Source: Patellaria atrata CBS 101060 (lineage: Eukaryota > Ascomycota > Dothideomycetes > Patellariales > Patellariaceae). Taken from it: 64,000 bases of DNA. The DNA lies in assembly GCA_010093705.1 (NCBI GenBank), contig MU006104.1, forward strand, positions 1-64,000. Reading direction: 5' to 3'. The translations under genes and the position numbers were made by a program. Below the pieces are notes generated by a model. It worked only from the letters and a program-made list of their open reading frames with translations. It searched no databases and was not told the origin of the DNA. Every line of letters starts with the position of its first letter. Position 1 is the stretch's first letter. Below are positions 22,543-64,000 of the stretch, piece by piece.

Positions 22543-23586
22543 CCCAACAACTTTCTACACCATCCTCACTATTAACATCAATAGCTCAACCATGTATTAC
22601 TCAATCAAGCTATCAAGAAGCAGATATTATTCTTGCTATCTCCTCTATTAAGAACAAATAGATTAAGAGCGCTAACTGTGCTGCTTCAACGTACAATGTC
22701 CCTCGATCAACACTCCGTGACCGACGCGCTGGGAAGCTAATAAGACGTGATTGCCAGCCGAACTCTAAGAAGCTCACCCAGCTAGAGGAGGAGGTAGTAG
22801 TCAAGCATATACTACAGTTGGATACGCATGGATTTTCGCCTACATACAATGCTGTACGAGATATGGCTAATCTACTACTCGCTCGGCGTGGTGGCTCTCC
22901 TATTGGCATCCCTGGCCACGCAACTTTGTGAAGTGGACAGACAGTCTTAAGACGCGTTTCAACCGGCCTTATGATAGGCAGAGAGCCTTATGTGAGGATC
23001 CAGGGTTTATCAGCAGCTGGTTTGAGCTTGTACAGCACACAAAAGCTACGTACGGTATCTGCGATGAGGATATCTACAACTTTGACGAAGCTGGCTTCTT
23101 GATGGGCAAGATCATGACTCAGCTTGTTATGACTGGGTCAGAGAGGCGAGGCCGGCCAAAGGCTATTCAGCCAGGCAATCGCGAGTGGGTGACAGTGATC
23201 CAAGGAATCAACGCTGCTGGATGGGGTATCCCACCATTTATCATCTTTGCTGGTCAGCACCACCTGTCTGCCTGGTACGAGGAGGAGGATATACCACAAG
23301 ACTGGGCTATCGCAGTCAGCGACAATGGCTGAACTACCAACGAGCTTGGAGTTGCCTGGCTAAAGCACTTCATTAAGCATACAGAGACCCAGGTGGTAGG
23401 CGCACGTCGGCTGCTTATTCTTGATGGCCATGAGAGCCACCACTCACTTGAGTTTCAAGCCCTCTGCAAGGAGAACAATATCTATACGCTCTGCATGCCA
23501 CCTCATTCATCCCACCTGCTGCAACCACTTGATGTTGGCTGCTTCTCGCCATTGAAGCGCGCATATAGCCGTCAGGTTGAAGCCTT

Positions 23587-23836
23587 NNNNNNNNNNNNNN
23601 NNNNNNNNNNNNNNNNNNNNNNNNNNNNNNNNNNNNNNNNNNNNNNNNNNNNNNNNNNNNNNNNNNNNNNNNNNNNNNNNNNNNNNNNNNNNNNNNNNNN
23701 NNNNNNNNNNNNNNNNNNNNNNNNNNNNNNNNNNNNNNNNNNNNNNNNNNNNNNNNNNNNNNNNNNNNNNNNNNNNNNNNNNNNNNNNNNNNNNNNNNNN
23801 NNNNNNNNNNNNNNNNNNNNNNNNNNNNNNNNNNNN
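23587..23836. other. Assembly gap (250 N)
   Basis: A run of exactly 250 N inside the transposon. The round number suggests an estimated or placeholder size, so the true element length is unknown. Confidence 1.
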
Positions 23837-23939
23837 TACTTAATCTATAACAGTAATATATATACAATACTTTAATGGGTTGTTGAGTTATACGCTTGTG
23901 GAGGTGCAGAAAGTTGCTGGGGCTGGCGTCTAGCTTGTA

Positions 23940-48258: not shown

Positions 48259-49576
48259 ATGCCGATCTTGCAAGTCCGATTACCGCTTTCAACAAAAAGT
48301 CCATTTCTTCCCTCTATATTCATACATTCAACTAGAATATGCCTACTATCTCGTAGCACCATATGTCACACTATTCCTAGGCGATGGGACTCATTAAGGT
48401 CCGGTAAGTCGCAAAGCAGGGAGCCGACCGCGGGGACAACAACGCCAATTCCTGACGAGTCCAATCCACCGCGGTCAAAGTCTCCCTTTTACTTCGAGGC
48501 TGGTTATGCGCTGTTTGCAAAGCGTGCGTCTCGACCATTTCCTCCGCCCTTTCTATCGAAACCGAACAGCTCGTTCTCGGACCCGCTAAGCAGCCATCAT
48601 AAGAGTGTGGACAAGAGGCCTCATGTGTTTGGCGAAATGATACGGGGGATAACCAATGGCGACGATGCTGTTTTGGTAAGCGAGAACTTCATAGGCGCCA
48701 ATGATGGGGTTGGAGCATGGGCAACTAAGGAACACGGTCATGCTGCGTAGGTCACCTCATATCGCATCTGGAGATTCAAGGTTCTTATATTGATATGTTG
48801 TAGACTGTGGTCTAGACTCATCCTCCACTTTTGGGCTCTAGCAGCTGAGCAGGATGCTTACGGGGCAAAATCTGTACCTGACCCTGTAAAATGGCTTCAA
48901 AAAGCGTTCGAAAAAACTAAGGAGGCGACTTCAAACCCAAATGAGTGGCTTGGGACGACAACAGCTTGTGGTGCACTGCTTGCTTCCGACTCTGAAAACC
49001 CACCACATCCTGTTCTCTACATCACCCAACTTGGTGATTCGCAGATACTAGTTATCCGACCCCGTGAAAAGAGAACTATATTCAAGACCACAGAGCAATG
49101 GCACTGGTTTGACTGTCCCCGACAGCTTGGTACTAACAGTCCCGACACACCCAATGATAATGCAGTTTTAGATAAGATAGAGATCGAGGAAGACGATGTT
49201 GTTCTCGCCATGTCAGATGGCGTTGTTGACAATCTTTGGGAACATGAAGTTGTGGAAAATGTGGTTGAAAGTATGAATAGATGGGAAGAGGACGACGTTA
49301 AAAAGCTCTCCGGTAAAGAACCTGGTGAAGCGACTTATGCTGACGGTATGAGATTTGTGGCACAAGAACTTGTAAAAGCTGCAAGAAAGATCGCAGAGGA
49401 TCCGTTTGCAGAGAGTCCGTATATGGAGAAAGCTGTCGATGAGGGCTTGTCGATTGAAGGAGGTTAGTAAAATTGCTTTCCGTTGGTATGTCTAAGATTA
49501 CTGACCGAATCTATCAGGAAAATTGGACGATATCAGCGTTGTCGCCGCGCAGTGCAAACGAAGAGCGATTCCTTGA
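48259..49576 (+). CDS. PP2C-type protein phosphatase, Azr1/Ptc7-like
   Basis: Exons: 48259-48746, 48804-49462, 49518-49576; 401 residues. Metal-dependent Ser/Thr phosphatase. The N-terminus (MPILQVRLPLSTKSPFLPSI, RICLLSRST) is basic and hydroxylated like a mitochondrial presequence, in line with mitochondrial Ptc7; an upstream exon cannot be excluded. Motifs: NGDDAVLVSENFIGANDGVGAWATKEHGHAALWSRL (first metal Asp), TTACGALLAS, ITQLGDSQILVIR, DDVVLAMSDGVVDNLWEHEV (second metal Asp) and the C-terminal KLDDISVVAAQC. The GYALFAKRASRPFPPPFL segment is, as I remember it, typical of fungal Azr1 homologues. Confidence 0.9.
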
Positions 49577-50808: not shown

Positions 50809-53800
50809 CTACTCCACCTTAATAAAGAAAGGCCTCTCACCCTCCTTCCTCTCCACCCTTGCCATCTCGCTCAACCTATCCCCAACATTACATCTCAAAA
50901 CCTCCACCGTGGCCGGACTATCCATACACCACCCCTCCTCGAACCTCCCATTCATCTTCCTCGCCGCCCTCACCGCCTCCCTCAGCGCAAAGAACACCGT
51001 AGCGCCCAAAAACAGCGGCGGCTCTCCAATTCCCTTGCTGCTCTGAATGGAGCGGAGGTGCTTCCACGTCAACTGCTGCCCGTCGCCGTCGTGCCGCAGC
51101 ATGCACACGTTGAACTGCTGCGGGATGTCCGCGAAGCCGGGGATCTTGTAGGTACCTGGACCTTGGGTCGCGAGGGCGCCATCGCGGGTCCAGAGGGTCT
51201 CTTCGAGGGTGAAGAGGCCCTGGCCTTGGACGAAGGCGCCTTCGATCTGGCCATAGTCGAGGGCTGGGTTGATGGACTGCCCGACGTCCATCATGATGTC
51301 TGTGCGGAGGACGGTGTGGTCACCGGTCAGGAGGTCAAGCTCGACTTCTGAGATGCCGACGCCCTGGTTTTGTTAGATAGGGGTTGGGAGTAAAAAGAGG
51401 AGGGGGGAAGTACCTGGGTGAAGTAGTAGTACATTGGCTTCTGCGTGGCGATGTCGAAGTTGCCCCATTTGTAGCCGATCTTGGGCATTTTCCAGAAGCC
51501 GTTGGCGGCGAGGTTGACGCGGTCGAGGTAGGCGGCGTGGGCTAACGTTTTCATGGGGGCGTCGGGACCGTATTTTTCTCTGTAGGGTTGGAGTCGTGCG
51601 TTTAGTTGATCACATGCGTGTTTGACTGCCATGCCGTTGAGGTCGCTCCCGGAGGATGCGGCGGTAGGGGATGCGTTTGCTGTCTGGTATGTTTGGCTGT
51701 CTTGTGTGAATATGGCGTCGACTGGGACACCTAGTTCTTGTGCGGCTACCTGGCACATTTTTGTATACAGCCCTTGACCCATTTCTGTACCACCGTGATG
51801 GAGGAGAATAGAGCCGTCGGCATAGATTTTAACATAAGCAGCGGCCTGGTTGAGATGAAGAGCAGTGGCAAAGCTGAGACCAAACTTGGTTGGAATCATA
51901 CAAATACCACGCTTCTTCCACTTGTTTGTTTTGTTGAACTTGGAAATAGCGGCTTTCCTGGCATCGTAGTTTGTTGATGCACGGAGTTGGCTTAGCATTG
52001 TTGGAATGTGCCAGTCTTCATCAATCTCCTGTAGGAAAGGGGTCCGATCTCCTTCTTTGTAAAGATTTTTTGTCCTCAGCTCATCGATGTCCATATTCAG
52101 TCCTTCAGCAATAGCTGACATGAATGTTTCGGTAATGTACATGGCCTGTGGACCACCGAACCCTCTAAAAGCAGTGTTACTATGAGTGTTTGTTCTGCAC
52201 ACATGTCCACGGATATGGACATTGGGAATCTCGTAACAGTTGTCTATGTGGGTACAGCAACGGTCCATAACAGCACCACTCATATCTTGAGAGAAGCCTG
52301 CATTATCGTAAACGTCTGCGTCAAGGGCTAAGAGTTTACCATCATTCGATACACCGACCTTCCACCTGGCTTGGACCGGATGTCTCTGACCACTCGTAGC
52401 CATGTCTTCGTCTCTATTTAGCATAATACGTACGGGACGCTTCTCCTTTTTGGCCGCAATAGCTAGAAGACATGCTATTGGGACACTTCGTGACTCTTTC
52501 CCTCCGAAAGCACCGCCCATGCGTTTGACTCTGGCGTTGATGCGGTTGCTAGGGACACCGAGAACATGGCTAACGAATTCTTGAGTCTCCATGGCGTTCT
52601 GAGTCGACGACCAAATCTCCATGGAACCATCCTCGCTGTGTGGTATAGCTAAGGATGCATTTGTTTCGAGATAGAAGTGCTCTTGACCACCGCATCTAGT
52701 AACCCCTTCGAAAACCCGATCGCACTCACTGAAAGCATCACGCATGGACCCATCAATAGCTTTCCCCTTCTTTAGTTCCTTTCCATGGGCAAAAAAGCTG
52801 TTCGCCTCGATAGCTTCGTCTATGGTAAGAATTACCGGGAGGTCTTCATATACAATCTTGACTGCTTTCGCCCCCGCTTGAGCTTGTAGGGCTGTCTCCG
52901 CATATATCATTCCAATGATTTGGCCATGCGAGAACACTTCTCCATCAGCAAAGAAAGGCTCGTCCTTCTTAATGGAACCCCATACATTGTGTTCCTTGGG
53001 GATGCTGTTCTTGTCGATGTAGCCAACGACTCCAGGTAATTCTAGAGCGGGTTTCCAATCAATCTCAACCAGTTTCGCATGCGCCTTTAAAGATAGAACA
53101 AGACCGCCGAATAGTTCCCTGTTCATCCGTGGAATGTCGTCAACATACTCTGCTTCTCCGGTACATTGCTTGAGAGAAGAAAGGTGCGGAATTTGCTTGC
53201 CAATGACTCGTTGCCCGTTTGGGTTGAGATCATCTCTTGAGCCTGAAGAAATATCTCTGTGAATCTCGGAAATAATCTCCTTATCGACTTGACCCAGTCC
53301 AAACTCGGCAATCACTTCATGCCAAAAACGGAAGAATAGTGACAGAGCGAGAGTTCTCCTATAATGGGCCATGCCTCCTGGTACGCTGAAGCTGAGTTGG
53401 AAGTCATGCAAGAGAGCTTCCAGTCCTGCTTCTAGTGTTGTGCTATCGAACCATCGTCTCCCCAATAGCGTATCTCTTGCTCCTTTAGCTTCAATCGTCT
53501 TTGGAGCCATGCCCCCATATGCTAATGTTATATCTTCGACAATTCCGTCGTCATTGAGTCTTACCCTGAAGCCAGTCGTCACAATGGCGATATCGTCATC
53601 CTTTCGCTTTGCCTGCTTGTAAGACTTCGTGATTTCTTTGACTCCATGTGTTGGCAAAGGGATTTCTATGCGAGTAATAACACTGTCAGGGGGTAAAGAG
53701 GTGGTACGGTATGCAATAAAGAACTCAGACAGAGGTAACGGAAACGATCCTTTAGCCTTGCTTTGGGCGTGAACAACAGCTCCAGCTGCGAAGAGTACCG

Positions 53801-55340
53801 GGTTGGCGTCAGATATTGGAGATGCCGTTGCTATGTTGCCCGCGAGCGAAGCGACATTACGGATCTGCCTACCTGCGAAATACCTGAGCTGCTTCCGCAG
53901 TGCCTCTACTGCAGATGCTCGTTGACCAAGTTTCGCATATACACTCTTACATATTGTTTCTAATTCTGAAAGTGGTGTATTGGCGCCGATTGTGAATGTG
54001 TTCATGGACTTTGCCGCTCTTTCAGATTCTGGTGCGGACATGGTTTTCAACTCTTCAATGTCTGATACGTAAACAGCTATGGCAAAATCGGAATTCTTGA
54101 ATCGAACCTCTACCTGCACTTCGCTGGCTCCTCCTACAAGTTTAGCAGATGGATATGCGTCTTTAATCTCTACGAGCTGCTGAAGATTGACAGGTCTAAA
54201 CCATAGCTTCTTGTCGTTACCGAAGCAGAGAGCTCTGCTTTCATGTTTCCATAACGCGGGAGGGAATATGAGCTCCGTATTCGGGATGTAGGGAGCGAAC
54301 TGGAACTGTGGAATTCCATTCGCTGGTATGGCAACTGGTGCATCTAATGATGTTCCTGTCTTAGAACCTGGACCCGGACCGTTCTCTTCTGGCTTGTTCT
54401 CCTTGGATTTGATTGGGGCTGCGTAAGTTGCACCACTGGTATTGGTGTCTTCAAGTTTAGTGTCTGCTATTACTGCCTTCGCCGTAGGATAATCGGAGGG
54501 ACTGATGGACGTGGCATCAGTAGATGATGTATCTTCAGCTGAAACACTGTCCGAATCATTGGAACAATTCGATCCTGGTGTATCTCTACAGCAGCCTCCT
54601 GGACGTCCACATGACTGCTTTGAAGCTGATTTACCATCATTTATTTTAAGTCCTGAAATGTCTAGCTCCAAGGTATCATTATTAGGATCCGAGTCTTCGT
54701 TTAGTTGACCTTTCAAGTCCTCGGTAACGAAGGTTTTGGCTGCTTGCAGAATTGGTTTGTAGCCGGTACATCGACAAAGATTGCCGTCTAAAGCACCCTC
54801 TAGCTCAACATCTCTTGCTGAAAGCCTGAAGACCCGCTTCTCGACATCGTAAGAATTCCGGACAAGTGCATATAGCGACATGACGATGCCCGGGGTGCAA
54901 AATCCACATTGAGATCCATGGAGCTTCGCAATTCGTTCTTGTAAGGGGTGTGGTTTCTCCACACTCCCGATTCCTTCAACGGTGATTACATGCTTTCCAT
55001 CCGCTCCTACTAACGGGAACAGACATGCGTTGACAGCATGATGGGCTATCTTGCCCTTCTTTAAAGGATCTTTAACCTGTAATACAACGGTACAGGCACC
55101 ACAACCTCCTTCACCACATCCAAGCTTTGTACCTTTAAGACCATGTTGTGCTCTGATGAAGTCTAAAAGTGTCCAATGCGGGTTTGGGTTTGAGAGGCTG
55201 ATTTTCCTACCGTTCACGTAGAAGTTGAGGTCGGAATGAGTATAGGTACTTTCAATAAGCGGGTTTAGGGAATCTTGAACCGAAACAGGGGAGGATGCCG
55301 GTTCCACGGAGGCAGATGGGGGACGAGGAAGAACAGCCAT
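50809..55340 (-). CDS. Molybdenum hydroxylase of the xanthine dehydrogenase family; candidate nicotinate hydroxylase HxnS (or HxA)
   Basis: Exons: 51414-55340 and 50809-51363; 1493 residues. Domain order: N-terminal 2Fe-2S with Cys75, 80, 83 and 105; second 2Fe-2S with Cys145, 148, 189 and 191; FAD-binding domain (KLVGGASEVQVEVRFK, YFAGRQIRNVASLAGNIATASPISD); then the Mo-cofactor domains (GGQEHFYLETN, MGGAFGGKESRS, NTAFRGFGGPQAM, GTEMGQGLYTKMCQVAAQELG, SSKGIGEPPLFLGATVFFALREA). The Glu of GGKE, the Arg of AFRGFGG and the catalytic Glu of GIGEPP are present. About 130 residues longer than typical because of a Cys/Ser-rich insert after the second iron-sulphur domain. Context (OYE, C2H2 regulator and FAD monooxygenase next door) favours HxnS of nicotinate catabolism over purine-pathway HxA; sequence alone does not decide. 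Confidence 0.93.
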
Positions 55341-55925
55341 AGCGTTGTTGATATCTTGGAACTACTTTTCAGAAATAACAACGGAATGATGCTGCTCAAA
55401 AGAAAGTATTTTTCAAGTGCTTATGGATAAATTTCATTATGCATTACCCCCGACCTATCATCACACTCTCAGATTGCTTTGCTGACAACAATACCACATG
55501 GGGGGTGTTGTCTGAGGTGTGGTGGTTGTAAGGCGGGACAAAACAGCTTTGCGCCACCCACCTTCCCCTTACGTTGTGCCTGAGATGCCCGTCCATATCC
55601 GCAAGTTACAACCTCCATCCTGCACCACCTTCCGTTAATCCCTCTATCCCCCACTTTCGCTGGTTTAATACGGAGCATATGGGTGAGATCCACTGTGCAG
55701 ACTGAGAGGAGCTAACCTAAGGTATGAGACGGTCATGTCTCGTGCTTCCGTTGTACTGTACAGTACTGCATGCACTCGAGACTAGAACTAAGGTAGTGAT
55801 CCCCCTTACGCAATGTTCGAGCTCCGAAGTAGAAAGTACGGAGAATCCTTCAATGTCATATCCTCTCTTCCACCCTGACAATCTCTTGAACCTTTACTCG
55901 CTCTCTGTCAAATCCGTATCGCAGC
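55341..55925. promoter_or_regulatory. Divergent promoter, Mo-hydroxylase / flavin oxidoreductase
   Basis: 585 bases shared by two divergent genes, so co-regulation is plausible. One HGATAR site (TGATAG, seen as CTATCA near 55456) of the type bound by AreA nitrogen regulators, and a GTACTGTACAGTAC palindrome-like run near 55753-55766. Confidence 0.45.
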
Positions 55926-57200
55926 ATGTCTAAATTCACACCATTGAAGGATACCGCTCTGTTCAAGCCCCTCCAATTGGGTGCATTGCAGCTTGAGCAC
56001 CGTGTGTTTCAGGCTCCGTTGACTCGTATGCGTGGGCAGAAAGAGGGTGATGGTATCTTTGTTCCAGTCGATAGAGCGGTAGAATACTATAGCCAGCGAG
56101 CAACAAAAGGCGGATTGCAGTTGACAGAGGCCACTGATATCTGTCAATATGTTAGTTTTCCCTTAAACATAGGGAATCAATGGTCTAATATGTTGTAGGC
56201 GAGCGGCTATCCAGGTGTTCCAGGCATTTTCACAGCTTCTCAAATCGCAGGATGGAAGCGAGTAACAGATGCAGTTCACGCCAAAGGTGGCAATATCTTC
56301 CTCCAGATGTGGCACACTGGGCGAGCTTCCCCAGCATCTTTCGTAGGAGGTTCACAGCCACTTAGTTCGAGCGACATCCCCATCGCTGGAAAAGCACTTG
56401 ACGGAACATTGTATTCTGACACGCCTCCGAGACCTGCAACCGTTGAGGAGATCAAGAATATCACTCAAGAATTTGCGGCTGCTGCGAAACGAGCCCGAGA
56501 GGCTGGCTTTGACGGGGTTGAAATCCACGGTGCTAACGGTTATTTGCTGGACCAATTTCTCCACGATAATGTCAACAGACGTACTGACCAATATGGAGGC
56601 TCAATGGAGAACCGCTGCAGATTCCCTCTAGAAGTTATCAAAGCTGTCTGCGATTCAATTGGCAGTGACCGTGTTGGTATTCGGTTAACGCCTTACAATT
56701 ACTTTCAGGATACCAAAGACAGCAATCCGGTCAAGCATTGGTCGTATCTCTGCGAGCAAATCGTTAGACTCCCACGCGAGCGAAGACCTGCGTATGTGCA
56801 CATGGTTGAACCTCGATTCGATGAAGTCTTGGACGAGAAAGCCAAGTTGGATGCTCTATCTGCATTTACTTCCAATGAAGGTGTCGAAGCTGAAGCTACT
56901 ATGAAAGGTGCAATCAGTCTTAAACCTTTTCGAGGCATTCTAGCCCAAGGCGAGGTGAAGTTTGTTGCTGCCGGCGGATTCAATAGAGACAACGCAGCAC
57001 CAAAGCTTGAATCCGGTGATGCAGACGCCATTATATTCGGGAGATGGTTTATCGCCAACCCAGATCTTCCGAAGAGGTTAGCTGAAGGTCTTCCTCTGAA
57101 TGAATACGATCGCTCGACTTTCTATGGAGCCGATCCGCCAGAAAAAGGATATACCGATTATCCGTTCTATGAAGCTAGTACCGTCAATGGAACATCATAG
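55926..57200 (+). CDS. Old Yellow Enzyme-type flavin oxidoreductase; candidate HxnT
   Basis: FMN-dependent NAD(P)H oxidoreductase reducing activated C=C bonds. Exons: 55926-56150 and 56199-57200 (intron GTTAGT...TTGTAG, phase 0); 408 residues. TIM-barrel markers: start TALFKPLQLGALQLEHRVFQAPLTRMRG; TEATDICQYASGYPGVPGIF; LQMWHTGRAS; catalytic/substrate-binding His185 and Asn188 in EIHGANGYLLDQFLHDNVN followed by RRTDQYGGSMENR; FMN-phosphate region VAAGGFNRDN and DADAIIFGRWFIANPDLP. Lies head-to-head with the Mo-hydroxylase. In A. nidulans the flavin oxidoreductase HxnT is part of the nicotinate regulon; identity is inferred from the neighbourhood. Confidence 0.93.
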
Positions 57201-57893
57201 AGCCTTCGCAGAGAGGATTTATTATTATTACTTTTCGGACGCAGGTACCCAATTGACCGTGTACTAGCATATATCATCATTTTTTCGGCATCTAGTTCTG
57301 GTTACATATGCTTCTACAAACGCATGCATATGGATTAAAGTTATAGCACGATAGACAGCAACAAATAGCATATTCTTCCCGGTTAATCCTCTGTTATCCC
57401 TTCAGGTAGTCCACGCTGGCTTTACATATTTACCAGTGCGTTTATGGTAAAGTATCTTGGACCCTGGAATATTTCTATGCAAGTTCCCCACTATAGCCCA
57501 CTCTTGATGAGTCGTGTATCAACCTTCCGTTACAATCCTTACTCTTCAATTGGAACAAGGCAATTTTCATGTTATTAAGCATGGGAAAAGCGAGGGAATT
57601 TACATCTCGGGAGTCTTCTTATCCTCGTCTTCTCCACCACGCTACAAAGGTACGACACTAATTTGACTCAGTCACCTTATTTCCAGAGCGCGCTATCTCA
57701 GACTACCAAGCGCGAATGTTACGAACTCTGAGCTAAGCATATCCTAGAAAAGCTCTTAGATTAGTCATTTGAGATAGCAAACCCCAAAAGTTTGGTTCAA
57801 TTCCATATAGTTCTTATTATTGAACTTTTGACTCCTCCACTCTTTCTTCAAGCATCCAGAAGACCGGGAAAGGCATTGAAGGTGGATGGAACT
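57201..57893. other. Intergenic, promoter of the C2H2 regulator
   Basis: No gene seen. The regulator's frame stays open back to about 57780, but the first well-placed ATG is 57894. Confidence 0.45.
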
Positions 57894-60800
57894 ATGGCGG
57901 CTAACCAAAGAACAGCCCGAAGAGCTGGGACTACGACTAGCGAAGGTGTTCCTATCAAGAAATTCCAATGCAGATTCGAAGGGTGCGAGAGAAGTTTCAC
58001 TCGAAGTGAACACCTTCAACGCCATTTACTGAACCACACTGCTGGGGAGAGCACCTGTGAAAGATGTAGGGCGCATTTCAAACGTCGGGATCTATTAGGC
58101 AAGTGGTGGGGAGCTTGTAGATTGATCCCCCCATTTTCGGATACTGACATCCTTCGATACAGAGAGACACATGGCACGCCATCGTCAAAAAGATGAAGAA
58201 GCTGGTGGTGAGGGAAATGGTGTACTCAACACCCGAAAACGCATGTGGAGGGACGCCGATGGTAATATCGTTACGAAAAAACCAACATTGGGACATACGA
58301 ACTCTAGTCCCCTAAGCCAAGGTGTCCCTTCCACTGTAGACGGGGATCGTTCGAGTCGTCAGGGCCAGCAAGCTGGTGCTCCAATATCTCCTCCCATTTC
58401 TACAATCAATTCGGATCAGTATCTACTAAGGCCAACATCCCAAGAGAGTATCGACGCTACGGAAGATCCTTGGGTCTTCGTGCCGGTAGGAGTAGACCAC
58501 CCACAACAGTCTTACGTCCCGACTGAGTCGGATCCGTTCTGGTCTGCACAGTCCAGACCACAGGGCGGCATTAGGAGTTTGCCTGATGATGTACCATATG
58601 ATGATGTTTTCAATCCAGATACTGGTAGGTACTGTTCCTCTCGTAGTTCTATAGTCTCAATGCTCACGATCTATAATCTATGATTTCTCTTCTTTCTCTT
58701 GTATGTATGTCTTCTAATCTCACGCGGGTTGTCCAATCCCGCTTTGTAAATGAGCAATCTGTTATGAATAGGATATAGCCACTAGTGCATATCAAATCAT
58801 GGTTTATACTTCCTAACTTGCCTACATTCTATGAAACCCTTTGGTATTTTCGATCTCTAGCGATTTAGGTATACGGTCATACTTTTTCGATTTGTGCACT
58901 TAGCCAGCATTCTTTTGAAGACTACACAGATTCTTCAAACAAACAGTATGCTTGTACATGCTGGGCATGGATACCTCAATTGGGGTGTATGACCTTCCTT
59001 ACTTCTCATTTTACATAGAATAGCTCTTTTAACGTGCAACAATTAATCATCGGAATTTATGTCTTCTATAGGTATCGTTGACGTCAATGCTGACATTTAC
59101 TTTAGCAAGCTCATTCAATATGCCGTTCACCACCATGTCAAATTATACATGGTTATTCGATCTGAATACTGCACAGACGCAACAATTTCAGCAGAACCCT
59201 ACCGTGAACGTGGGGAACGGATCGTTTCCAACTGCAAATATGGATAACTATCAGATAAACTCTCCTTCCTTCGGAGTTTCAACCTATGATGTACGTGACT
59301 TTGATTCGCCAATGGCACGGCGATGCTAACTGATTGATGATGTAGTCTTCAGTCAGCATGCCAGTTCCATATGATTCCAATGATACCAATTTGTCAGATA
59401 ACATGCTTCCAACAGCAAATATTCCATCTCCATCTTCACTGAATACACAACAACAAGAGAGTCATGGTGTGACGACTTCTCATATCTCTAAACCAGTGGC
59501 AACGTTTTCTCACCCATCGATTACAGAGTCCGGTTATAGTAGCTCGAGTGATCGGATTCTGAAAGAAAGATCAGAAGATCAACAGGTTACAACCGCCCCC
59601 GTTCTAAGTTCATCGCCTAGAGAGCGCCCCTTATCTATGTTGAATGGCTCAAGACATCTTCCAGATATTGACGAGATCGCCAGGTCAGAGTTGTTGGACC
59701 TGATAGATGCGGCAAAGCCAATGACTCCCGATGGGACCTATATTACAAGGGATCATCCTTTACTCTCACTGTCCGCACTACAGACGTACTGTGATCAGTA
59801 CTTTATCTGTTTTAATACATCATACCCCCTAATGCATCAAGCAACATTCGAAGCTTCTCATGTTCCTACATTGTTACTAATATCGGTTCTGCTTCTCGGT
59901 GCAACCTATTGCGACAAAGATGCGCACCAATTAGCGGTGAGTAAACCTTCAACTGTATGATAATCCATTACTGATAATCGAAGGTTTGCATACACGACGT
60001 GATTCGCCCGCAGATCTTTGCAGATGCTGGCTTCAATGCCCGACCTGAGCTATGGGTCTTACAGACTATCCTGCTCGTGGAATGCTTTGGCAAATCTCGT
60101 GCGGGGCAGAAACAGCACGATATGAGCCATCTTTTCCACGGCCTCCTTATCAACTTGATTCGGCGAAGTGATTGCCAGACCATTCGACCCCCTGGAGTTT
60201 ATGATGTGACCGAGGACCTCGAGGATGACTGGAAAACCTGGGCCGAAGCAGAACAAAAGAAGAGACTTGCATTTCTATGTTTTATGTGGGATGTTCAACA
60301 TGCAGTTTTATTCTGCCAATCCCTCTGTATGTCTGCTTTCGAACTCCGCTCAACTCTGCCTTGCGATCAAGCAGTATGGGAAGCAGACTCTGCAGAATCA
60401 TGGCAACAGTTACGCAGACAACAGAAACCTCCCCCTCTATTTCTGACAATTCTCAAAATATACCTCGCACCTGCCGCTCTACCTCCCCCTAAAAATCTTA
60501 ACGCACTATCACGTCTTCTACTCCTTCACGGCCTAATGTCCATATCCTGGGACATGAAACGCCGCGACCAGACATCACTAGGCCTCGTTGCCACGGATCC
60601 TCATGTCGGGGACTGGAAACACCGCCTGGCAACTAGTTACGACGCATGGAAATCCGACTTCGACTCCTTCTGCAAGGAACATTCTTCACACCTAAACTCA
60701 TCTACCTCGACCGACCTCAAGCGCGAATTCGCATGCTACGCAACCGCCTACAACGCAATCTACCACGCCGCCCACATCATCCTCAACGCCGAGTTCCTCG

Positions 60801-61339
60801 ACCTCCAGATCTATGCCGGCGCCCGCCACATCCTCGGCCGTCCCGTCGGCCGCCCGGATTACGCTCGCAGCCAACGCGTAGTCAAGAAATGGGTTGCCGA
60901 TGCCCCCAAATCGGCTGCGAAATCAGCATGGCACGGCGCGCACATCCTCCGCGACGGCATTACCAACCTCGACGACTTTGACGCCATGGGTCTGTTTCAC
61001 TATCCCTGGTGTCTCTACCTCGCTACCATAACCTGCTGGGCCTTCCACCACGCCCGGCCCTCTTCATCCGCTGTTCTCGAAGACGATCGTGGGCCTGAGG
61101 ATGACGATGAGATGGTCTGGGATGCCCGCGCGGAGATGGAGGCTGTGGTGCTTGAGATGGCGGAAGCGGGGCCGGAGGCGCTGGCGAGAGGGGCGGGGAA
61201 GAGGAGGACGGGTGGGCTGACGGCTGTCGTGGCGAAGTGTTTGAGTAGGGTTCGGTGGGCTGTCGTGCATGATGGGATGATGGTGCTTAGGGGATTGGTG
61301 CCGGGGAGGTTGATTTGCCAGTATGATAGTTTGGCCTAG
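57894..61339 (+). CDS. C2H2 zinc-finger / fungal-specific domain transcription factor; candidate HxnR
   Basis: Exons: 57894-58098, 58163-58624, 59106-59290, 59346-59936, 59984-61339; 932 residues. Two adjacent N-terminal fingers: Cys26-Cys31-His44-His48 and Cys55-Cys58-His71-His75. The second is completed only by splicing a GC-AG intron (RRDLLE-RHMARHRQK). A disordered middle (about 80-400) leads to a fungal-specific regulatory domain (about 420-800): DHPLLSLSALQTYCDQYFICFNTSYPLMHQATFE, then ARPELWVLQTILLVECFGKSRAGQKQHDMSHLFHGLLINLIRRSDC. Intron 2 is 481 nt and could hide a small exon. HxnR of A. nidulans has this same combination, so with its neighbours it is a good candidate for a pathway-specific activator of the cluster. 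Confidence 0.9.
58099..58162 (+). other. GC-AG intron in the C2H2 regulator
   Basis: The donor G|GCAAGT matches the optimal GC-donor consensus; the acceptor is GATACAG with a CTGAC branch near 58144. It restores His71 and His75 of finger two. No GT donor in phase does so. Confidence 0.85.
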
Positions 61340-62110
61340 AGCGTCGCATTCAGAAGTTAGGGAGTTAATTGGAAATGGCTTTGAGGGAGGGTGGAGTATT
61401 GGGTGGAGAAACTGGTGTTGCCCGGGATCATGGAGTTGGGAAATGCTTTCTAGGATTTGAGCGTATCGATGACAGGGTTTATAAGCTATCACGAGCAAAG
61501 AAGGAATTATTAACTCTAAAGTTCAAGAATGATAAAATCCCTTTACCTTGAGTTACCGTTCCTTGAACTTCTGTCTGCAACGAGCTTGCCAAAATTTAGA
61601 GTACCATATAGTCTCAAACCATGAACAGCTCCCTCCTTCACTAATACAATCCCTTTCATTCTAACAAATATCCTTTAACAAGAAGAGTAGACAAAGGTTT
61701 ACTCAAGTCCAGCCTAAACTACTGTAAAAACCAAACGAAAGAAAAAAATAAAATAAAAATAAGATAGAGACGAAAGTCGAACTAGACCTAGGGATAAGTT
61801 GAAAAAAAAAATTTAAAACAAGTTAGAACAGAACTTGTTCTATGAAATAACCACTGACTGCTTGGACAAATGGCCTATTTTAGCTCTATGAATATTATTC
61901 CAATTATAGTGTTTGCATGTATATATCCCTTTAGTTTTACGAAACTCAAATTTCCCTTTTTTAAAGCTCAAAGCTATCTAGCCCTTTCACCACCACACCC
62001 GCCATCACCTTCCTATTTCAACAATAGCTTTTTCCTTTTCAACTCTAGATACCTTTACTTTCACAGAATCAATTTTCAATTTTCTAAAGCTAAGGCTATC
62101 TCGAGTAACC
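61340..62110. other. Convergent intergenic region with imperfect duplication
   Basis: Holds both 3' ends. A 61870-62121 frame is low complexity and not supported as a gene. An imperfect duplication overlaps the 3' end of the monooxygenase gene (listed next). Confidence 0.45.
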
Positions 62111-62155
62111 TTACAGATTAGCCCTCTCACTCACCACCCCCTTCATCGCCTTCCC
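61917..62155. repeat. Imperfect tandem duplication, about 120 bp
   Basis: 61917-62032 resembles 62048-62155. Shared landmarks in order: an A/T-rich start, TAAAGCTCAAAGCTATCT versus TAAAGCTAAGGCTATCT, and CACCACACCCGCCATCACCTTCC-like versus CACCACCCCCTTCATCGCCTTCC-like segments. The second copy includes the stop codon and last codons of the monooxygenase. Confidence 0.5.
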
Positions 62156-63684
62156 ATCTCCCTTGCTCTCCCCCGCCCGCTCCTCCTCACCCGCAACGGC
62201 CTTCGCCCAAACACCTTCCACATGCGGCTCACACCTATACCTGAGCAACCACTCCCCACAGCCGCCCCAACGCCACGGAAACGGATCATCCCCCTCCTCG
62301 AACCCCATCTCCCGCGCACGCTTCCCTCCCTGCTGAAAAGCAGCATACGCGACATCCCTCCTTTGCTGCTCCTCCCCATCGTGCAGATGATATAGCGTCT
62401 GCTGACGATTACCCGCCTCGACGACCCTCTCCGTCCTCGTGCGCCTGCACTCCTCGTAAACCCTGAGCGCGCGCCTCTTCCCCGCGACTTCCTTCCTCTC
62501 CACGCGCGCGAGACACAGACCGAGCACCTCGGCGTCCTCGAGACTCATGCCCGCGCCGGACGCGAGGTACGGCAGCGTGGCGTGGACGGCGTCGCCAAGG
62601 AGGGTGAAAGCACCGCTGGGATGGGACCAGGAGGGCTCGAGCGCGGGCCGGATGCACAGACGCCACTTGTGCACGCTTTCGCAGAGCGCGAGGAGTTTCG
62701 GGATGCGAGGATCCCAGTCCGCGAAGAGGGCGCGCATTTCGTCGACGTTGCCGGCGAGGGTCGAGGGACCGTCTGGGGGGATGTCGTCCGGGACCAGAAG
62801 GACCATGTTGAACAGCTTGCCGCCGCGGAGGACGTAATTAACGGCGTGGGCGGAGGGGCCGACCCAGTAGTTTACCTGGGGGTCTGTGACGAGGGGGGCG
62901 AGCTCGGGGTCTTGCAGCATGGCCGAGGTGGAGAGGAGGAGACGGTAGGCGAGGTCACCTGTTTCGAGGGGGGCTTCGGGGTGGCCGAGGAGGATTTCCC
63001 GGCAGCGGGAGTTTATGCCGTCGGCGCCAATGATGAGGTCCGCGGTGAGCTTATCGCCTGTTACTAGTATCGCTGTTGCTGCTGCCTCGTCTTGGGATAC
63101 GATTACGTTTTGGACGCGCGCGTTAACCCGAACCTCGGCGCCTAGCTCGACCGCGCGGTCTAGGAGACACTTGTGCAGATTTGCGCGGTGGAAGTCCCAG
63201 AAGGGGGTTCCGCACTCCTGTTGGTAGTCGTGGAAGTCCATGTGGGCGAGGTGCTTGCCCTTCCAGCTGAGCATGTTGCACCGACGTGGACGGGTTGCGT
63301 GCGCGGAAAGGATCTCCTCCATTCCCCAGGAGAAGAGGATTCGCGAACTGTTAGGCAGACATTGTATGCCTGCGCCGATTTCTCCAATCTGTGGTGCGGA
63401 TTCAAGCACTTGTACTTTATGCCCGGCGAGCAGAATAGATATGGCGGCTCCGAGGCCGCCGAGGCCGGCGCCGATGATGAGGGTCTGGGGTTGTTAGGAG
63501 GGGGTAATGAAGGGATATATATAGAATGAGGATGGTGATAAGGGGAGCATAGATATGTACGAAATGGTAGAATAGATCTATAGGGAGAGTAGGTACGGGG
63601 TCAAAATTAACCCGCATGACTTACATTCAGCCTATCCTCTTCCTTCCTCTCAATCTTTTGCCTGATTTTCGGTGGTGAAGCCAT
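62111..63684 (-). CDS. FAD-dependent monooxygenase (salicylate hydroxylase/NicC-like); candidate HxnX
   Basis: Class A flavoprotein hydroxylase, usually acting on phenolic or pyridine rings with NAD(P)H and O2. Exons: 63625-63684 and 62111-63484; the 140-nt intron starts GTAAGT. 477 residues. Exon 1 encodes only a basic leader (MASPPKIRQKIERKEEDRLN). The joined product reads TLIIGAGLGGLGAAISILLAGHKVQVLE (GxGxxG FAD motif), EIGAGIQCLPNSSRIL, LIIGADGINSRCREILLG (DG motif) and FTLLGDAVHATLPYLASGAGMSLEDAEVLG (GD motif). The C-terminus ERANL resembles the KANL peroxisomal signal of human catalase. In the A. nidulans nicotinate pathway HxnX is the NicC-like 6-hydroxynicotinate monooxygenase; assignment here is by class and context. 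Confidence 0.92.
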
Positions 63685-64000
63685 ACCTGTGATTTTTCTG
63701 TAACTCTCAAGCTCCAGGTTGTACTGGAATCAACGATTGAAGCATTCAATCAATAGCACAAAATCGGTTGCGGAGTTTTACAAGAATCATTCGGCCACAA
63801 GCAAGCAAGTAGGTCCTTGTACAGTATAATTCTCCTCAGCCTAATTCAAGGTTTGAGGTAGCGTCACTGCTCATGATAAACAGCGCAGCTCAAGCTCTAG
63901 TGTACAACAGACAGCTGTGGTGTCTTGTTGTACAGAAGGACAAACACAGCTTCACCGGACATAGTGAGCAGTTCTAGCTCTCCCATGACGAAAAAGACCT
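63685..64000. other. Promoter of the monooxygenase, window edge
   Basis: No coding frame seen. Contains one clear inverted repeat (63901-63934). Confidence 0.45.
63901..63934. repeat. Inverted repeat TGTACAACA...TGTTGTACA
   Basis: Nine-base perfect arms (63901-63909 and 63926-63934) around a 16-base spacer containing CAGCTG, 217-250 bases upstream of the monooxygenase start. Could be a dimeric regulator site. Confidence 0.6.

What the first reader, a model, noticed from the sequence alone, without database searches (positions are those of the whole stretch)
50809..63684. Candidate compact nicotinate-catabolic (hxn) gene cluster
Four adjacent genes form a coherent set: a xanthine-dehydrogenase-family Mo hydroxylase, an Old Yellow Enzyme, a regulator with two C2H2 fingers plus fungal-specific domain, and a NicC/salicylate-hydroxylase-like monooxygenase. 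Known in A. nidulans: HxnS (nicotinate hydroxylase), HxnT (flavin oxidoreductase), HxnR (C2H2 activator) and HxnX (6-hydroxynicotinate monooxygenase) belong to one nicotinate-inducible regulon. Finding these four classes side by side within 13 kb is unlikely by chance. I infer cluster function; more members could lie beyond base 64000.
Basis: partly seen in the sequence, partly recalled or inferred. Interest (0 to 1): 0.75.

Follow-up and report, generated by a model that had tools for sequence, protein, structure and literature searches.

The report
Fungal gene cluster for degrading nicotinate
Eight neighbouring genes in a fungus look like the regulator and the seven pathway enzymes of the known fungal route that breaks down nicotinate (vitamin B3) for nitrogen; the find is real but belongs to an already described kind of cluster.

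Summary
The genes at 50,809-63,684 are intact relatives of hxnS, hxnT, hxnR and hxnX. Exact protein matches point to Patellaria atrata CBS 101060 (Dothideomycetes). The Mo enzyme has the HxnS state at all five tested sites that separate nicotinate hydroxylase HxnS from xanthine dehydrogenase HxA; the only other XDH-type gene found, on another contig, has the HxA state. Past base 64,000 hxnM, hxnW, hxnN and hxnV follow: eight genes in 21.3 kb (50,809-72,063), between PP2C and VPS8 genes. The order X-M-W-N-V and the divergent pairs S-T, M-W and N-V match published descriptions. All seven enzymes of the A. nidulans pathway are represented. HxnP, HxnZ and HxnY are not in the cluster; whether they exist elsewhere is open. 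In 19 of 20 taxa found in all three lists (this one included), hxnS, hxnX and hxnR relatives share a contig length. So this is a new member of a known kind. Side lead: HxnX ends in RANL, not SRL. No expression or enzyme data, and no A. nidulans sequences, were at hand.

The parts
50809..55340 (-). hxnS, nicotinate hydroxylase (XDH family), 1493 aa, one intron 51364-51413
   Evidence: Model; 100% match to P0001; domains; HxnS-type residues
55341..55925 (.). shared hxnS-hxnT divergent promoter region; one GHGGGG (55649) and seven GNGGDG motifs
55926..57200 (+). hxnT, Old Yellow Enzyme type reductase, 408 aa, intron 56151-56198; catalytic His-Asn in EIHGANGY (by eye)
   Evidence: Model; Pfam; PDB comparison; model not checked against an annotated protein
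57201..57893 (.). hxnT-hxnR gap (hxnR promoter region); one GHGGGG (57486) and five GNGGDG motifs
57894..61339 (+). hxnR, regulator with two C2H2 fingers and Fungal_trans domain, 932 aa; introns 58099-58162 (GC-AG), 58625-59105 (481 nt), 59291-59345, 59937-59983
   Evidence: 100% match over 932 aa to P0241; domains
62111..63684 (-). hxnX, 6-hydroxynicotinate monooxygenase type, 477 aa, intron 63485-63624; ends in RANL
   Evidence: Model; 100% match to P0121; PDB comparison; C-termini
63685..64000 (.). hxnX upstream region up to the window end; the cluster goes on past it with hxnM, hxnW, hxnN and hxnV (contig coordinates in the Full report section)
48751..49467 (+). left neighbour: PP2C-type phosphatase gene, not part of the cluster

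Best explanation
The locus is the hxn nicotinate-catabolic gene cluster of Patellaria atrata: eight genes, hxnS-T-R-X-M-W-N-V, in 21.3 kb. By analogy with the pathway worked out in A. [quoted passage not shown] HxnV adds a hydroxyl to give 2,3,6-trihydroxypyridine, HxnT reduces the ring, and HxnW oxidises the product to a cyclic imide. HxnM opens the ring and HxnN releases ammonium. HxnR would bind GNGGDG-type sites in the promoters and switch the set on with a late pathway metabolite. Shown here: gene content, open frames, HxnS-type residues, order, divergent pairs, shared contig lengths in relatives, motif excess. Inferred: substrates, induction, nitrogen use.
For: HxnS residues: Ala inserted in FATAL, His after it, SG at the Mo-cofactor site, Pro for His954, Ile for Phe417 (criteria; sequence). 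The C6 paralogue has the HxA state at these sites (the Phe417 site by eye). HxnS is 62-73% identical to the other 119 listed relatives; the C6 paralogue is a median 53.5% identical to all 120. In a 30-row tree HxnS lies in a supported group of 17 Dothideomycete and Sordariomycete rows (100/99), with the C6 paralogue outside. Downstream genes: HxnM (442 bits to 3qbu, the published closest structure), SDR HxnW, amidase HxnN, phenol-hydroxylase-type HxnV. Nearest paralogues found in the genome for HxnX, HxnR and HxnV are 45%, 33% and 36% identical. Pooled promoter gaps: GNGGDG 26 against 14.1 expected, 0 of 500 shuffles; GHGGGG 7 against 3.0, P 0.034.
Against: No HxnP, HxnZ or HxnY at the locus, and none of six dioxygenase loci elsewhere has a divergent MFS neighbour among the frames read. 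Four solved structures score above NicC (155 bits) against HxnX: 336, 291, 286 and 186 bits, and the His-x3-Tyr pair is shared by the three aligned, so it does not prove the substrate. HxnX lacks the canonical SRL ending. AreA-type HGATAR sites show no excess (10 against 11.2). Taken one by one, only one promoter gap shows a GHGGGG excess (P 0.03) and none a GNGGDG excess (P 0.10-0.34); three motifs were tried. OYE1, the published closest structure to HxnT, is not among the 60 best shown of 138. No A. nidulans sequence was in any comparison. No expression or growth data.
Confidence: 0.93

Rival explanations
1. The set is an hxn-derived cluster with a changed substrate range, for example starting from a different hydroxylated pyridine or a hydroxybenzoate, with HxnX acting as a 4-hydroxybenzoate or vanillate hydroxylase.
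For: The best-scoring solved structures against HxnX are a 4-hydroxybenzoate enzyme (336 bits) and a decarboxylative vanillate 1-hydroxylase (291 bits), ahead of NicC (155 bits). HxnP and HxnZ are not at the locus.
Against: HxnM (ring-opening imide hydrolase type), amidase HxnN and HxnS fit a nitrogen heterocycle better than a benzoate (inference). HxnX relatives (57-71% identical) share contig lengths with HxnR and HxnS relatives, while a distinct 45% paralogue sits on C4. A. nidulans HxnX is itself in this monooxygenase family.
Confidence: 0.05
2. The Mo enzyme is the ordinary purine xanthine dehydrogenase and the neighbours are unrelated oxidoreductases gathered by chance.
For: The XDH family domains and the names given by sources.
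Against: HxnS state at all five tested sites and a separate HxA-type gene on C6; eight hxn classes side by side, with the published divergent pairs; co-location estimate about 1e-6 for three families alone; shared contig lengths in relatives.
Confidence: 0.01
3. The cluster is a decaying relic: genes present but pathway broken, as reported for early diverging Aspergillus section Flavi species.
For: Three of the eleven regulon genes are not at the locus; clusters with pseudogenes are on record.
Against: All eight genes give open models of about the published length, three of them identical to annotated proteins; the hxnN model is tentative. In A. nidulans, deletions of hxnP, hxnZ or hxnY weaken growth without abolishing it.
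Confidence: 0.02

Closest known systems
hxn regulon of Aspergillus nidulans (11 genes in three clusters; PMC5746545, PMC8478523, PMC9304392)
   Same: Classes S, T, R, X, M, W, N and V; divergent hxnS-hxnT pair; HxnS residues; two-finger HxnR with Fungal_trans domain and a similar NLS; excess of the predicted HxnR motif
   Different: Here the eight genes are in one cluster; A. nidulans has them in three, with hxnM-hxnN on another chromosome. No hxnP, hxnY or hxnZ at the locus. HxnX ends in RANL, not SRL.
11-gene hxn cluster of Cyphellophora europaea (PMC8478523, as described in the text; figure 1 not seen)
   Same: Order X-M-W-N-V with M-W and N-V as divergent pairs, and the divergent hxnS-hxnT pair
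   Different: In C. europaea hxnP, hxnY and hxnZ belong to the same cluster; here VPS8 follows hxnV after about 3 kb in which no gene was recognised (3 of 22 frames scanned). The text read does not say which end of the X-to-V block faces hxnR, so that point was not compared.
HxA, purine xanthine dehydrogenase
   Same: Same enzyme family and domains
   Different: The HxA-type gene of this genome is on contig C6; the window gene has the HxnS-type residues.
NicC, bacterial 6-hydroxynicotinate 3-monooxygenase (5eow, 8uiq), and the 4-hydroxybenzoate and vanillate enzymes 8gsm and 8x38
   Same: Same FAD monooxygenase family; the His-x3-Tyr pair is in the 8gsm and 8x38 alignments and, by the A. nidulans paper, in NicC
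   Different: HxnX scores higher against 8gsm and 8x38 than against NicC; its assignment rests on linkage, not on similarity to NicC.

Membership tests
HxnS (nicotinate hydroxylase) | Ala inserted between the conserved Phe and Thr (FATAL, against FTAL in HxA) and His in place of Phe1013 | tested here: met
   FATALH in the window protein, FTALF in the C6 paralogue. 103 of the 120 listed relatives have FATALH; of the other 17, five have FATAVH or FATAIH and twelve gave no match to my pattern. Criterion from PMC5746545 section 2.2.
HxnS (nicotinate hydroxylase) | Ser-Gly at the Mo-cofactor positions that are Ala-Ser in HxA | tested here: met
   TAASSGSDL in the window protein, TAASASSDL in the C6 paralogue; TAASSG in 115 of 120 relatives
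HxnS (nicotinate hydroxylase) | Pro in place of bovine His954, and an aliphatic residue in place of bovine Phe417 | tested here: met
   GDRTPF against EITHF in the C6 paralogue; Ile opposite Phe417 in the alignment to bovine XDH, counted by eye, Tyr in the C6 protein, by eye
HxnS (nicotinate hydroxylase) | A separate HxA orthologue in the same genome (true of nearly all species with HxnS) | tested here: met
   Two MoCoBD_1 loci in the genome, C16 and C6; criterion
HxnR | Two C2H2 fingers plus Fungal_trans, and the reported NLS | tested here: met
   (second finger by eye). VLNTRKRMWRD here, 8 of 11 positions as in the published VLETRKRMRRA, counted by eye
HxnT | Old Yellow Enzyme with His183 and Asn186 as in OYE1, and Tyr372 | tested here: inconclusive
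   Family met, His-Asn pair present in the aligned OPR1 match; Tyr372 and orthology to A. nidulans HxnT not tested
hxn cluster | Divergent pairs hxnS-hxnT, hxnM-hxnW, hxnN-hxnV | tested here: met
   Strands; criterion in PMC8478523
hxn cluster | hxnP and hxnZ (MFS transporters) and hxnY (dioxygenase) | tested here: not met
   Not at the locus: 6 of the 11 frames of 180 aa or more between 22,000 and 50,700 and the neighbours up to VPS8 were scanned without one; C16:83,001-93,000 was fetched but its genes were not examined. Absence from the genome is not shown: 8 of 256 MFS candidates were scored. The published clusters often lack members, so this does not decide membership.
HxnX | His and Tyr that bind 6-hydroxynicotinate in NicC | tested here: inconclusive
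   His-x3-Tyr present but also in the three aligned non-NicC structures, so not specific
HxnX | Canonical PTS-1 at the C-terminus (SRL in A. nidulans, said to be conserved in other Pezizomycotina) | tested here: not met
   Ends in RANL. 4 of 120 listed relatives end in [SAC][KRH][LM]; 97 of 120 end in [RK][ASP]-x-[LIM], three of the four canonical ones included. KANL is an atypical PTS1 of mammalian catalase (one passage of PMC7498260), so import is still possible.
hxn regulon | Induction by a nicotinate derivative through HxnR, ammonium repression through AreA | not testable with these tools
   No expression data. Motif counts: HxnR-type sites in excess when pooled, AreA-type sites not

The most novel reading that the evidence does not exclude
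In this lineage the regulon has been cut down to one block holding the seven pathway enzymes and the regulator, without dedicated transporters or HxnY; and the peroxisomal step uses an atypical targeting end (R-A-x-L type) that is kept across many HxnX proteins of Dothideomycetes and Sordariomycetes instead of the canonical SRL.
Probability: 0.35. Interest if true: 0.35.

Novelty: new member of a known kind. Interest (0 to 1): 0.25.

Why it matters
It adds a Patellariales genome to a well-described fungal primary-metabolism cluster and gives a compact arrangement in which every enzyme step assigned in A. nidulans is represented in one block. Two points are testable: how nicotinate gets in without HxnP or HxnZ at the locus, and whether HxnX is still peroxisomal with a RANL ending. 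It does not change what is known about the pathway itself.

Tried and rejected
Chance clustering of an ordinary xanthine dehydrogenase with unrelated oxidoreductases was rejected.

HxnY elsewhere: six 2-oxoglutarate dioxygenase loci were found and 10 kb around each was read as frames of 110 aa or more with a hydropathy count, not with Pfam. None has a membrane-protein frame as divergent neighbour; one (L017) has an MFS-like frame (by eye) about 4 kb away on the same strand. Three of the six were compared with solved structures. The C35 gene (one exon used) is the closest of these to Neurospora thymine-7-hydroxylase (248 bits), the structure the A. nidulans paper gives as nearest to HxnY. It lies beside an Amidohydro_2 gene, which by my recall of thymidine salvage fits thymine-7-hydroxylase next to isoorotate decarboxylase, so I read it as the salvage enzyme; HxnY is not excluded. 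The other three were not compared with structures.

HxnP and HxnZ elsewhere: the MFS search scored 8 of 256 candidates, so it says nothing about absence. In the 3 kb between hxnV and VPS8, three of 22 frames of 70 aa or more were scanned and gave no domain.

AreA sites: no excess. The four other gaps tested (two convergent, after hxnV, before hxnS) showed no excess of HxnR-type sites.

HGT of hxnM from Xylonomycetes to Dothideomycetes, reported in PMC8478523, was not tested: the three protein searches had gone to HxnS, HxnX and HxnR. The word 'Patellaria' does not occur in the main texts of PMC8478523 and PMC5746545; PMC9304392 was not searched for it. A search for 'Patellaria atrata' with 'nicotinate' found 0 papers, and 'hxn cluster' with 'Dothideomycetes' found only PMC8478523.

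First gene models for hxnR, hxnM, hxnW and hxnV were incomplete and were replaced by models anchored on expected peptides; hxnN is the computed model. A second model for the hxnX end was dropped because the annotated P0121 and 12 of 120 listed proteins end in ANL. NCBIfam gave no model over its cut-off for HxnS or, among the 25 of 67 shown, for HxnX, and none at all for HxnR.
Full report
What is there. The window is bases 1-64,000 of a 635,264-base contig (C16) of a 28.3 Mb genome in 46 contigs. Three proteins of the locus match records of Patellaria atrata CBS 101060 at 100% identity and equal length; this is a Dothideomycete of the order Patellariales. Gene models are hxnS 55,340-50,809 (-), hxnT 55,926-57,200 (+), hxnR 57,894-61,339 (+) and hxnX 63,684-62,111 (-). 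The hxnR model has a GC-AG first intron and a 481-base second intron and gives the annotated 932-residue protein.

The cluster does not stop at the window's end. Further along the same contig come a polysaccharide-deacetylase-type hydrolase, a short-chain dehydrogenase, an amidase and a phenol-2-monooxygenase-like protein. These are the classes published for hxnM, hxnW, hxnN and hxnV (table 1 of PMC8478523). In contig C16 numbering, which continues that of the window, the models are hxnM 65,623-64,585 (-), hxnW 66,103-67,033 (+), hxnN 69,396-67,319 (-) and hxnV 69,971-72,063 (+); the divergent gaps are 65,624-66,102 (M-W, three GHGGGG motifs) and 69,397-69,970 (N-V). The spliced models have 312, 253, 517 and about 628 residues (619-631 in the four hxnV models printed), against 307, 254, 543 and 620 in A. 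nidulans. These four models and that of hxnT were not checked against annotated proteins, and hxnN is the least certain. HxnM scores 442 bits against 3qbu, the structure named as closest in the A. nidulans work. HxnV scores 271 and 246 bits against 1pn0 and 2dkh, named there too, with 8r2u first at 296. HxnW scores 117 bits against 3awd, named there, below other dehydrogenases (up to 162 bits). HxnN matches amidase-signature enzymes. Left of hxnS lies a PP2C-type gene, and right of hxnV, after about 3 kb, VPS8 (79,015-75,020, -). The cluster is thus eight genes in 50,809-72,063.

Which XDH is it? PMC5746545 (section 2.2, read) lists residues that separate HxnS from HxA. The window protein has FATALH, SG, TP and Ile at the Phe417 site; the C6 protein has FTALF, AS, TH and Tyr. 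The Phe417 site was read by eye from the alignment to bovine XDH and from the C6 frame. FATALH is in 103 of the 120 listed relatives and TAASSG in 115 of 120. The window protein is 62-73% identical to the other 119; the C6 protein is a median 53.5% (maximum 55.7%) identical to all 120. In a tree of 29 of those 120 rows, picked by me for spread, plus the C6 protein, HxnS groups with Dothideomycete and Sordariomycete rows (17 rows, 100/99). Its exact place in that group is unresolved, and the one HxA row is on a long branch. This fits vertical descent; it does not test it closely.

Are the neighbours the hxn genes? In the rows typed, the length is the same in 24 of 26 taxa for S-X, 28 of 35 for S-R and 51 of 53 for X-R (51 of 54 with Sporothrix epigloea, which I had left out); all three agree in 19 of 20, P. 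atrata itself included. Some of the differing pairs are different strains or fragmented assemblies. Equal contig length does not show adjacency, but locus tags are close where visible: Coniothyrium glycines has 010260, 010261 and 010263 for R, S and X. One listed record is an OYE domain joined to a Fungal_trans domain (P0348), which looks like adjacent hxnT and hxnR merged by annotation. Within the genome the nearest paralogues found are 45% identical for HxnX, 33% for HxnR and 36% for HxnV. Four solved structures score above NicC against HxnX, the first two a 4-hydroxybenzoate enzyme and a decarboxylative vanillate 1-hydroxylase, and the His-x3-Tyr pair does not tell them apart, so the substrate of HxnX rests on linkage. 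HxnT is an Old Yellow Enzyme with the catalytic His-Asn pair; its best matches are 12-oxophytodienoate reductases, and OYE1 is not among the 60 best shown.

Order and regulation. The text of PMC8478523 (figure not seen) places hxnV, W, X, M and N between hxnP and hxnR in C. europaea, with hxnN and hxnM between hxnX and hxnV, separated by hxnW, and with V-N, W-M, S-T and P-Y as divergent pairs. The order X-M-W-N-V and the pairs S-T, M-W and N-V here fit that; hxnP, hxnY and hxnZ are missing from the locus. The five promoter-bearing gaps, pooled, hold 26 GNGGDG motifs against 14.1 expected (0 of 500 shuffles) and 7 GHGGGG against 3.0 (P 0.034), the forms predicted for HxnR in PMC8478523. One by one, only the hxnM-hxnW gap stands out (GHGGGG, P 0.03). 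Four other gaps show no excess. My recall of zinc-finger recognition rules fits a GNGGGG-type site for the two fingers here. AreA-type sites show no excess (10 against 11.2).

What is missing. HxnP, HxnZ and HxnY are not at the locus. Six dioxygenase loci were found elsewhere, none beside a divergent membrane-protein frame. The one closest to thymine-7-hydroxylase among three compared lies beside an Amidohydro_2 gene and is more likely a thymidine-salvage enzyme (recalled). In A. nidulans, loss of any one of these three genes weakens but does not abolish the use of pathway compounds, and the seven enzyme classes here cover the enzyme steps assigned there.

A side lead. A. nidulans HxnX ends in the peroxisomal signal SRL, said to be conserved in other Pezizomycotina. 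The protein here ends in RANL. Of 120 listed proteins (this one included), 4 end in a canonical [SAC][KRH][LM] and 97 in [RK][ASP]-x-[LIM], most often RAVL (27) and RANL (12); some rows are truncated models. KANL is described as an atypical PTS1 of mammalian catalase (PMC7498260, one passage). Either this end works as an atypical signal or the step is not peroxisomal in these fungi.

Verdict. It is a new member of a known kind. Papers: PMC8478523, outline and results sections 2.1-2.10 read plus passages; PMC5746545, abstract and sections 2.2-2.4 plus a passage; PMC9304392, abstract, results parts 1-3 of 4 and the HxnY section; PMC7498260, one passage; the others only as search listings. No supplement was read.

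Noticed in passing
62111-62125, and the HxnX listing P0121-P0240: HxnX ends in RANL; 97 of 120 listed proteins end in [RK][ASP]-x-[LIM] and 4 in a canonical PTS1, although PTS-1 is said to be conserved in HxnX.
   Followed up: partly
58099-58162 and 58625-59105: hxnR has a GC-AG first intron (GCAAGT donor) and a long, 481-base second intron; the model with both gives the annotated protein. The published A. nidulans hxnR has a single 75-base intron.
   Followed up: partly
L013 (contig C35, 81201-91200): A dioxygenase close to Neurospora thymine-7-hydroxylase (248 bits, one exon) lies next to an Amidohydro_2 gene, possibly a thymidine-salvage pair.
   Followed up: partly
P0348 (Aureobasidium melanogenum): A listed protein carries an OYE domain joined to Fungal_trans, probably adjacent hxnT and hxnR merged in annotation.
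   Followed up: no
23333-23875: A frame with a DDE-transposase-like start (by eye) runs into a stretch of N.
   Followed up: no
L035 (contig C4, 917756-918781): A 45% paralogue of HxnX, possibly a 4-hydroxybenzoate-type hydroxylase of this fungus.
   Followed up: no
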